Source of the DNA: Liolophura sinensis | Lineage: Eukaryota; Mollusca; Polyplacophora; Chitonida; Chitonidae | Direction: 5' to 3' | Assembly (NCBI RefSeq): GCF_032854445.1 | Contig: NC_088299.1 | Location: 7,912,324 to 7,976,323 of the forward strand | DNA: 64,000 nucleotides | Part shown: positions 58,601 to 60,360 of the stretch, piece after piece | Layout: the number at the start of each line of letters is the position of its first letter | Position numbering within the stretch: position 1 is the first letter of the stretch | Made by a program: the position numbers and the translations under genes | Notes under the pieces: model-generated | Told to the model about the DNA's origin: nothing | Databases searched by the model: none | The model's input: only the letters and a program-made list of their open reading frames with translations

Positions 58601-60360
58601 CGTTTGATGAAGAGGATGATAATGATCGCGGCGATAATGACGACGATGATAATGACGGCGACGGCAGCTGCGACAGCTGTGACTCAGGGAGAAGTAATTA
58701 TATCATAGTGATGACGATGACAATGATACTTATGGTGACGATGATGATGAATAAGACAACTTCGGCAACAATGATTATGAGTGTGATGATGGTGTTGGTG
58801 ATAATGATAATAATAGTGATGATTGTGTTGGTAATAATGGTGATGATGGTGATAGCAACGACGTTGGCAGTAACGATGAAGATGATAAAGACGGTATTGG
58901 TTAATAAGGATAACAGTGATGAAGACTGATGAATATGGCGATATTATTCGGTGCAAGAACCAATTCAGGATCGCCCAAAATAGTTTATTCGGTACCGTAC
59001 ATTAACAACAAGTCATTTTTACCTGCCCACAGTCGCCCAGTAACGTCACATTTAGCATCGTTAATCTGGAACGCCTTCGATTCCTTGTCCTCTGCTATCA
59101 CCTTGATAGCCTTTGAGTCCCAGTCAAGGTGACAAATTGACAAATTCTGACCAACGATCAGACCGCCAGATTTCCGGGGTATCGCAAATCCGACATTACC
59201 ATCTGAAAAAGCAAGGCGTTGTGATGAAAAATAGGTTCTGACTTAATTAAATAGGTTCAGAAATGTACTATTCTATATAGATTTAATGTACTTGCTAAGG
59301 GTGGCCTAATGATTATAGCGTCCGACTCGAAATTGAGAAACTGCTGTCATATTAATGACTTTAAATAAGATACTTGTTGCTGGTTCTCTTGGTGCTTAGC
59401 ACGCTTGATCCGGTGTCAGGATAATGTCACTGAGTGGGGTGTAAAACACCAATCAAATGAGTAAATAAACTTACCTACATGTACCCTGATGTACCTTAAA
59501 AATGAGACTTACCAGTATCTTAGTAATATGTACTGTTTTATACGACACCTTCTAATATATGCGGTTTCCTCCCACTATAATACTGCCCACAGTCGTCACG
59601 TGAGTGATATATTCTTGAGTACGACGTAAAACACCAATGAAATCAATCAATAAATGAATACCAATTTACGTCATGCATGACATTTAACATTATGTACATG
59701 AGTTTTTATGACACTGTCATTAGCATTTGCATTTGCATGACACTTTGCATGAATATGTACGTTCATATGACACTTACCATTATGTACCTTTGTATGACAC
59801 TCACCAACATGTACCTTTACACGACACTTACCAATATGTACCTTCCTGTCACACTTACCAATATGTAGCTTTGTATGATACTTACCAATATGTGCCTTTG
59901 TATGATACTTACCAATATGTACCTTCATATGACTCTTACCAATATGTACCTTTGTATGACACTTACCCATATGTAGCATTGTATGATACTTGCCAATATG
60001 TACCGTCATATGACTTACCCATATGTACCTTTATATGACACATACCAATATGAACCTTTGCATGACACTGACCAATATGTAGCTTCATATGACTTACCAA
60101 TATGTAGCGTCATATGACACTTACCAATATGTACCTTTACATGACACTCACCAATATGTACTTTCATATGACACCTACCAATATGTACCTTTGTATGACT
60201 CACCAGTATGTACCTTTGTATCCTCCCCAGTGATGGAGTCCCATTTGTGAACATCGCCACACTGAACATCCACATAATACAGTGACTGACACCTATCATC
60301 CCAATGTGGACCCTCCCCAGTCGTCATGGCAACGTTCTTGAGCACCACGGAGACGTCCAT
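55409..60360 (-). CDS. Regucalcin/SMP30 protein 2, predicted active
   Basis: Metal-dependent lactonase of the SMP30/gluconolactonase family; in animals it acts on sugar lactones and is linked to calcium handling. Cytosolic, no signal peptide. Exons in transcript order are 60204-60360, 59023-59202, 58087-58305, 56614-56748 and 55409-55620 (157, 180, 219, 135, 212 nt), all phase 1 and all GT-AG, giving 300 residues. Active-site residues by comparison with human: E16 (E18), N100 (N103), N152 (N154) and D203 (D204) are kept; R101 is Gln98. Landmarks are [48 protein letters not shown] and [17 protein letters not shown]. Intron 1 starts with an array of copies of its own splice donor. Confidence 0.94.
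56286..56495 (-). mobile_element. SINE family A, minus, diverged
   Basis: ACTCAGTAATATTTCACGTT at one end, a tRNA head (CCAAACACTAGGCCACGGAG) at the other; a deletion in the middle. Intron 4 of regucalcin-2. Confidence 0.75.
56614..56748 (-). CDS. Regucalcin-2 exon 4
   Basis: 135 nt, acceptor AACTTGACAG, donor ACAG/GTAATT. It encodes [20 protein letters not shown] with Asp203. Confidence 0.93.
56749..58086. other. Intron 3 of regucalcin-2, nothing recognised
   Basis: AT-rich; open frames on both strands are short and show no family resemblance or splice support. Confidence 0.45.
58087..58305 (-). CDS. Regucalcin-2 exon 3
   Basis: 219 nt, acceptor CTGACCACAG, donor ATTA/GTAAGT. It encodes [20 protein letters not shown] (Asn152 as metal ligand), then [10 protein letters not shown]. 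Confidence 0.94.
58515..58930 (+). repeat. GAT/GAC trinucleotide-rich tract
   Basis: About 400 bp of imperfect (GATGAT), (GACGAC) and (AATGAT) words in intron 2 of regucalcin-2. The long frames across it encode only Met/Ile/Asp or His/Tyr strings and are not genes. Confidence 0.88.
59023..59202 (-). CDS. Regucalcin-2 exon 2
   Basis: 180 nt, acceptor GCTTTTTCAG, donor GCAG/GTAAAA. It encodes [14 protein letters not shown], then [20 protein letters not shown] with Asn100. Confidence 0.94.
59390..59465 (+). repeat. Third dispersed repeat family, partial copy joined to a SINE tail
   Basis: TCTCTTGGTGCTTAGCACGC, then CGGTGTCAGGATAATGTCAC, ending GTGTAAAACACCAATCAAAT. It links the family at 37435 to the shared SINE 3' tail. 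Confidence 0.5.
59563..59655 (+). mobile_element. SINE family A 3' fragment
   Basis: CGGTTTCCTCCCACTATAAT, then TATTCTTGAGTACGACGTAA and AACACCAATGAAATCAATC. Confidence 0.7.
59740..60203 (-). repeat. 25/27-bp minisatellite made of copies of the exon 1 splice donor
   Basis: Read on the gene strand, the unit is CAAAGGTACATATTG/GTAAGTGTCATA, 27 bp with some 25-bp variants, about 17 copies. The first unit is the real exon 1 end: ACAAAGGTACATACTG/GTGAGT. Each copy repeats the last 14-16 exon bases and the first intron bases. Most copies have GTAAGT, a better donor than the real GTGAGT. Regucalcin-1 lacks the array. Confidence 0.88.
60204..60360 (-). CDS. Regucalcin-2 exon 1 (start)
   Basis: ATG at 60360-60358 and 157 nt to donor ACTG/GTGAGT, the same length and phase as in regucalcin-1. 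It encodes [20 protein letters not shown] with Glu16. A TTTTGGCGCAG acceptor-like site at about 60409 suggests an untranslated 5' exon boundary. Confidence 0.92.

What the first reader, a model, noticed from the sequence alone, without database searches (positions are those of the whole stretch)
59740..60222. Minisatellite that multiplies a 5' splice donor of regucalcin-2
On the gene strand, intron 1 opens with about 17 units of 25-27 bp, each repeating the end of exon 1 and a donor (ACATATTG/GTAAGT). Most decoys have a better consensus than the real donor GTGAGT at 60203-60198. The paralogue regucalcin-1 has no array, so it arose after the duplication. By my reading, use of the next donor shifts frame and leads to a stop, so donor choice matters for expression.
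Basis: partly seen in the sequence, partly recalled or inferred. Interest (0 to 1): 0.82.

Follow-up and report, generated by a model that had tools for sequence, protein, structure and literature searches.

The report
Chiton minisatellite copying a splice donor
A short DNA stretch containing the end of an exon and its splicing signal has been copied about 17 times at the start of an intron in a chiton gene; similar arrays turned up at about one in seventeen exon ends that we sampled elsewhere in this genome, so it looks like a common by-product of repeat expansion, known before from amphioxus, rather than a special switch in this gene.

Summary
The array is real: window 59752-60221, about 17.6 units of 27 bp, each repeating the end of regucalcin-2 exon 1 plus its 5' splice donor (true donor 60203-60198). 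The locus is in the chiton assembly published as Liolophura japonica, corrected to L. sinensis. A third regucalcin 10.3 kb away shares the array, so it arose after regucalcin-1 split off but before the 2/3 duplication. It is not a dispersed satellite. 'Only donor 1 works' holds for regucalcin-2 but not for its sister, where seven strong donors stay in frame.

The larger result: it is not special to regucalcin. Of 103 donors sampled in TCP-1, myosin and SLC6 genes, 6 lie in such arrays (5 of 102 without one seen beforehand; resampled control 0 of 515), as do 4 of 23 regucalcin donors and 2 of 123 acceptors. There is no peak at the junction: arrays are simply common in the 5' parts of introns. 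Among 15 arrays, 111 of 177 GT-keeping copies score at least as high as the true donor, and frames show no bias.

This matches amphioxus 'mirages'. Most likely a near-neutral mirage, the first donor being used. Which donor is used was not tested; no RNA was available.

The parts
60204..60360 (-). regucalcin-2 exon 1, coding part (ATG at 60360-60358; ends ...GEDTKVHT + G, phase 1)
60198..60203 (-). 5' splice donor GTGAGT taken as the authentic one
   Evidence: the donor-1 splice product aligns to regucalcin without a gap at the junction; the position and phase match the regucalcin-1 donor at 49032; no RNA evidence
59752..60221 (-). minisatellite, about 17.6 units of mostly 27 bp, TRF consensus read on the gene strand GGTACATATTG/GTAAGTGTCATATAAA; the array includes the last 18 coding bases of exon 1
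59724..60003 (-). 280 bp identical between the regucalcin-2 and regucalcin-3 introns, covering the distal half of the array; the exon-proximal half differs
59023..59202 (-). regucalcin-2 exon 2 (acceptor TTTTTCAG/ATGGTAATG; donor first base 59022)
49032..49033 (-). regucalcin-1 exon 1/intron 1 boundary (first intron base 49032): no array
   Evidence: 0 near copies; no TRF row there

Best explanation
It is a 'mirage': a minisatellite that grew by tandem duplication across an exon-intron boundary, so that exon end plus 5' splice donor became the repeat unit. Because the original exon end and donor stay in place at the upstream edge, the protein is preserved if the spliceosome uses the first donor; the copies are then removed with the intron and drift and turn over like any intronic minisatellite. 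Shown: the anatomy; the shared array in regucalcin-3; a turned-over exon-proximal half; independent arrays of the same kind at donors of unrelated genes; no frame bias; decoys that keep good donor scores. Inferred: that the first donor is the one used (from homology of the encoded proteins, tested for regucalcin-2/-3 and one myosin), and that the array is selectively near neutral.
For: Array and donor. The donor-1 product matches regucalcin with no gap at the junction (57.4 bits); in regucalcin-3 the SGL domain score falls as copies are added (78.6, 72.5, 67.2 bits). Same anatomy elsewhere: 6 of 103 donors and 2 of 123 acceptors have near copies of the junction 24-mer within 450 bp, stable over six settings (6-7 of 103; acceptors 2-4 of 123), 0 of 515 with resampled flanks. 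One of the six (L025) I had already seen; without it 5 of 102. The six lie in 4 of 50 loci. 4 of 23 regucalcin donors, 3 independent origins (regucalcin-2 itself has 1 near copy at this strict setting). In a myosin the donor-1 product aligns without a gap to myosin VIIa (1.7e-31) although 18 copies of the junction follow. No peak at the junction: 1% at -60, 5.8% at 0, 9.7% at +100. Of 196 junction copies in 15 arrays 177 keep GT; 111 of these score at least as high as the true donor on the matrix, 108 on U1 energy, ties included. Frame of the second donor 6/5/4.
Against: No RNA: use of the first donor is inferred only. Copies were found by similarity to the true junction, which favours copies with intact donors. 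Regucalcin-2 and -3 share a 280-bp identical stretch over the distal array in a region about 87% alike overall; gene conversion explains it, but constraint would too. Arrays are commoner at the 5' than the 3' side of introns (10 of 103 v 1 of 123 at 100 bp in, p 0.003, uncorrected best of four offsets; 0.006 if L025 is taken out as one of the ten), which plain neutrality does not predict.
Confidence: 0.8

Rival explanations
1. Regulatory donor choice: the ladder of donors competes for U1, so some transcripts take a decoy, meet a stop and are degraded, and copy number tunes regucalcin-2 output.
For: In regucalcin-2 the strong decoys give a frameshift or an in-frame stop; 10 of 14 decoys pair with U1 at least as strongly as the true donor. 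The amphioxus globin paper notes that such copies could act as cryptic splice sites.
Against: The sister gene with the same array keeps 7 strong donors in frame. The same anatomy occurs in chaperonins, myosins, RPC1, NPL and a GH31 gene, with no common function. Reported mirages in lancelet are said not to disturb splicing (PMC3087553, PMC3902484).
Confidence: 0.09
2. The donor ladder acts through U1 binding as such: many U1 sites at the start of introns protect the transcript from early polyadenylation or boost transcription, so arrays are favoured at the 5' side of introns.
For: Excess of arrays on the 5' side of introns against the 3' side; 177 of 196 copies keep GT and most of those score well.
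Against: No peak at the donor itself; arrays defined by GGTAAGT are no denser than arrays of its reversed 7-mer (13 distinct loci each in the first 8.8 Mb of C1, by my grouping of the listings; raw matches 1429 v 2030 in the whole genome).
Confidence: 0.06
3. A dispersed satellite or mobile repeat happened to insert beside exon 1.
For: One other locus, C6:20980438, carries units with 3 mismatches.
Against: Unit hits are confined to the regucalcin-2/3 region apart from C6; 0.87 hits are expected by chance. The C6 locus is a 35-bp array of its own, at the end of what I read as an unrelated exon (Pfam gave nothing over its cut-off). The regucalcin unit starts with the gene's own coding end.
Confidence: 0.02
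4. Assembly artefact.
For: Tandem arrays are error-prone; no reads were available.
Against: The published assembly is HiFi-based, 14X (PMC11068029 passage); units are about 80% alike, not identical; an independent 92% copy exists.
Confidence: 0.02

Closest known systems
Amphioxus 'mirages' (Adh3, globins BflGb6/BflGb9, troponin C, PGBD5)
   Same: Minisatellite-like tandem duplications spanning an exon-intron boundary, many units carrying splice signals, at 5' and 3' boundaries, with unit lengths that overlap ours (passages read in PMC3087553; PMC3902484).
   Different: Mollusc, not cephalochordate; up to about 20 junction copies here; here with a sampled frequency (6 of 103 donors). Some lancelet cases were backed by RT-PCR or a second haplotype; ours are sequence only.
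Human IFI6 (6-16) minisatellite providing multiple splice donor sites
   Same: A minisatellite multiplies a donor at an exon end.
   Different: In IFI6 two downstream repeat units are reported to be used as donors, giving three mRNA species (PMC4526556 passage and its citation of Turri 1995; Turri 1995 itself not seen). Use is unknown here.
Human internal tandem repeats at exon-intron boundaries in segmental duplications
   Same: Minisatellite expansion at exon-intron boundaries of duplicated genes; mean unit 30 bp (passages of PMC2812944).
   Different: There they vary exons or make new introns with transcript support; here no new intron is seen.

Membership tests
Mirage (cephalochordate exon-intron boundary minisatellites) | Tandem array spans an exon-intron boundary and its unit contains exon end plus splice signal | tested here: met
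Mirage (cephalochordate exon-intron boundary minisatellites) | Unit within the reported range (10-72 bp in Adh3, 150-160 bp in globin BflGb6) | tested here: met
   27 bp here; median spacing 23-109 bp over 15 arrays; reported range
Mirage (cephalochordate exon-intron boundary minisatellites) | Both 5' and 3' boundaries can be affected in the genome | tested here: met
   donors 6 of 103, acceptors 2 of 123
Mirage (cephalochordate exon-intron boundary minisatellites) | Regular splicing not disturbed (RT-PCR) | not testable with these tools
   no transcripts; only homology of donor-1 products for regucalcin-2/-3 and one myosin
Mirage (cephalochordate exon-intron boundary minisatellites) | Length instability between alleles or cells | not testable with these tools
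   one assembly only; indirect sign: the exon-proximal half differs between regucalcin-2 and -3
IFI6-type minisatellite with used alternative donors | Downstream repeat donors used in mRNA | not testable with these tools
   no RNA; in regucalcin-2 later strong donors would truncate the protein
Dispersed satellite | Unit present at many unrelated places | tested here: not met
   31 of 33 hits in the regucalcin-2/3 region of C5, 2 at one C6 locus; reversed control 0. The tool warns that its DNA searches can miss common words

The most novel reading that the evidence does not exclude
Chitons carry thousands of donor ladders at intron starts, and their splicing machinery follows a strict 'first donor' rule (and 'last acceptor' on the other side) that ignores equal or stronger sites only tens of bases away; the ladders may even be kept because clustered U1 sites at intron starts help transcription.
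Probability: 0.12. Interest if true: 0.85.

Novelty: new member of a known kind. Interest (0 to 1): 0.55.

Why it matters
If the sampled rate (6 of 103, 95% interval 2-12%; 5 of 102, 2-11%) held over the 28,010 protein-coding genes reported for this assembly, and if these have several introns each (not counted here), thousands of introns would begin with ladders of near-equal donors. That would be a natural test bed for how a spliceosome chooses among near-identical 5' splice sites, and would extend mirages from cephalochordates to molluscs. It also gives raw material for intron gain and for protein extensions of 9, 15 or 22 residues, since some ladders are in frame. For regucalcin itself the array is most likely of little consequence.

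Tried and rejected
Genome-wide pattern of three GGTAAGT within short gaps: 1429 matches against 2030 for the reversed pattern, so donor-bearing arrays are not enriched by raw count. Grouped by me into distinct loci, each pattern has 13 in the first 8.8 Mb of C1 (listings). This goes against any claim that donors attract arrays.

Junction as a hotspot: rejected; repeat frequency rises smoothly from exon to intron with no peak at the donor.

Donor against acceptor at the junction itself: 6 of 103 v 2 of 123, p 0.15, not significant.

Array-first test: of 21 distinct GGTAAGT loci that I grouped from the listing I fetched 20 (the 21st, in a myosin, was already in hand as L025). 17 of 20 had an assessable upstream flank; 7 of 17 looked coding by a codon score above 6 (8.8% of 114 intron windows and 81% of 100 exon ends pass), and 0 of 12 assessable downstream flanks did. 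Of 13 control arrays with TGAATGG, 12 were assessable and at most 1 passed; Fisher p 0.09, not significant. That control hit is also a true exon by homology (NifU domain, 9.3e-6, just under its cut-off). The score is not strand-specific: the same upstream flanks read antisense passed in at least 3 of 17 tests and 1 of 12 controls. Of the 7 passing flanks I searched 6 for homologues (L074 not searched): 4 have one (DUF4457, GH31, RPC1, NPL), L079 had no Pfam hit and L072 nothing convincing.

Rows left out: of 240 family matches listed I chose 133 exons to fetch by gene and compactness. The choice was not by repeats, except that I knew that the myosin exon in L025 lies beside an array. 103 donors and 123 acceptors passed my score and flank filters. 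Other donor-side TRF rows (an L006 exon, a further L011 exon, L029, L035, L037, L039, L043, L047) do not repeat the junction at the main setting or had no scored donor; L035 counts at the 20-mer settings and L047 at one 24-mer setting. For one of the 15 arrays (L040, 66-bp TRF unit) the frame tally used a nearer copy at 26 bp; with 66 the tally is 7/5/3. The donor matrix and the U1 5' end are recalled generic values, not fitted to this species.

Full report
What is there. On the minus strand, regucalcin-2 exon 1 ends at 60204 and the donor GTGAGT occupies 60203-60198. From 60221 to 59752 lies a 27-bp minisatellite, 17.6 copies, 80% matches, TRF score 555; 200 resampled versions of 59501-60500 gave at most 55. 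The unit holds the coding end (AAAGGTACATAYTG) plus a donor and about ten intron bases. The donor is supported by two things: the product of donor 1 aligns to a solved regucalcin without a gap at the junction (4gn7, 1.4e-14), and regucalcin-1 ends exon 1 at the same place and phase (first intron base 49032).

Where it is. Scaffold number, longest scaffold, N50 and the lengths of scaffolds 11-13 equal those published for the chiton assembly named Liolophura japonica (632 scaffolds, longest 96,433,062, N50 37,343,639; passages of PMC11068029), since corrected to L. sinensis (PMC12441733, whole text). The total differs slightly (609,464,459 held, 609,495,693 published).

Paralogues. Regucalcin-1 has no array (0 near copies at its four donors). 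A third gene, regucalcin-3, 10.3 kb beyond regucalcin-2 and outside the window, carries the array (92% over 482 bp). So the array arose between the two duplications. Its distal half is identical in the two genes (280 bp, 59724-60003) in a neighbourhood about 87% alike; the exon-proximal half has turned over separately, and the last coding codon differs with it (VHT v VHI). Local gene conversion plus unit turnover at the exon edge is the simple reading.

What the decoys would do. In regucalcin-2, of 26 candidate GT sites (G before GT, matrix score 2 or more) only donor 1 and a weak AAAG/GTACAT at +15 give an open regucalcin; the others shift frame or include the TAG at the second unit. In regucalcin-3 the first seven strong donors are all in frame and would add 9 residues each; adding 9 and 54 residues lowers the SGL domain score from 78.6 to 72.5 and 67.2 bits, and the 9-residue insert is gapped out in the alignment to regucalcin 3g4e. 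On strength, the true donor of regucalcin-2 is matched or beaten by 1 of 14 copies on the matrix and by 10 of 14 on U1 pairing.

It is not special to regucalcin. A C6 locus with a similar unit is a 35-bp donor array at the end of what I read as an unrelated exon (no Pfam hit over cut-off). Two of the other regucalcins, on C7, have donor arrays of quite different sequence (45 bp at intron 3; 61 bp at intron 4): 4 of 23 regucalcin donors in all, 3 origins. For a wider sample I took exon matches of Cpn60_TCP1, Myosin_head and SNF/SLC6, fetched 133 exons with flanks, called donors and acceptors and asked whether the 24 bases centred on each junction recur within 450 bp with at most 5 mismatches. 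Donors: 6 of 103; acceptors: 2 of 123. With resampled flanks: 0 of 515. The six lie in four loci: two introns of a chaperonin gene that I read as CCT3, one of a gene that I read as CCT5, and three myosin introns; gene names within the families are my reading of the exon peptides. One myosin array (L025) I had met before fetching; without it the count is 5 of 102.

Not a junction hotspot. The same measure taken along the gene is 0-1% from 140 to 45 bp upstream of the donor, 3-5% in the last 30, 5.8% at the donor, 7-11% from 10 to 200 bp into the intron, and 1-5% on the intron side of acceptors. Arrays are thus common in the 5' parts of introns and some reach over the donor into the exon. The 5' excess (10 of 103 v 1 of 123 at 100 bp, p 0.003, uncorrected) is unexplained.

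No sign of selection on the ladders. Over 15 arrays (4 regucalcin, the C6 locus, the six above and four array-first loci with homologues) 177 of 196 copies keep GT; 111 of the 177 score at least as high as the true donor on the matrix and 108 on U1 energy. The copies were found by similarity to the junction, so decayed ones are under-counted. The second donor falls in frame 0/1/2 in 6/5/4 cases. In a myosin with 18 junction copies, the product of the first donor and the next exon is a gap-free myosin VIIa match. In the cases that I tested (regucalcin-2, -3 and this myosin) the homologous protein is the product of the first donor; I infer that the first donor is used.

Known kind. Tandem repeats across exon-intron boundaries were described in amphioxus as 'mirages' in Adh3 and globins, and in troponin C and PGBD5, with regular splicing reported to be undisturbed, though the globin paper notes that the copies could act as cryptic sites (PMC3087553 passages; PMC3902484 passage). 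In six library searches I saw no listed title or abstract start that names such arrays in a mollusc; one search listed 20 of 393 papers, and the library holds open-licence papers only. An abalone paper reports a 27-bp minisatellite in an intron, with no statement that it spans a boundary in the passages that I read. An earthworm metallothionein paper discusses repeats of minisatellite length in its introns (passages). In human IFI6, repeat donors are reported to be used (PMC4526556 passage).

Verdict. Its role in expression is unsupported. What deserves attention is the frequency of such arrays in this genome and the unanswered question of how the first donor is chosen.

Noticed in passing
window 29031-29500 (+): A 30-bp minisatellite (16 copies, unit ...TTTGTGTGTTACAGAATATTTACCATCA) ends at the acceptor of an exon at about 29504-29884 whose product matches ionotropic glutamate receptor C-termini weakly (2.2e-4; no Pfam hit): it looks like an acceptor-side mirage in the same window.
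   Followed up: partly
L047 (C8:50218193-50221213), minus strand: A 43-bp array begins beside an SLC6 exon end, but its unit reads as acceptor plus next-exon start (TCTGTGTTGCAGGGAGGTATATACTGGTTACAG), so the unit may come from the far end of the intron.
   Followed up: no
L006 (C1:72037729-72043931), minus strand: Units of about 109 bp in a chaperonin gene repeat some 90 bases of coding exon plus donor, little changed.
   Followed up: partly
L086 (C1:26352775-26354327): A 39-bp donor array in a GH31 gene stays open in frame for several units (13-residue repeats), so readthrough would add a repeat domain.
   Followed up: no
L004 1018-1696 (C7:7541817-7542495): A further regucalcin on C7 has a 54-bp array with donor-like units (ATG/GTAAGTATG) starting some way into intron 1 but not copied from its exon end; not counted as a junction array.
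   Followed up: partly
window 45930 (-): The regucalcin-1 intron 4 donor reads CAG/GCAAGT where the other copies have GT: a possible GC donor.
   Followed up: no
window 61703-62830 (+): A 375-residue open frame just upstream of regucalcin-2 that reads like a Tc1/mariner-type transposase (label recalled, not searched).
   Followed up: no
sampled introns, L006-L062: 24-base words recur nearby more often in the first 200 bp of introns than in the last 200 bp; cause unknown.
   Followed up: partly
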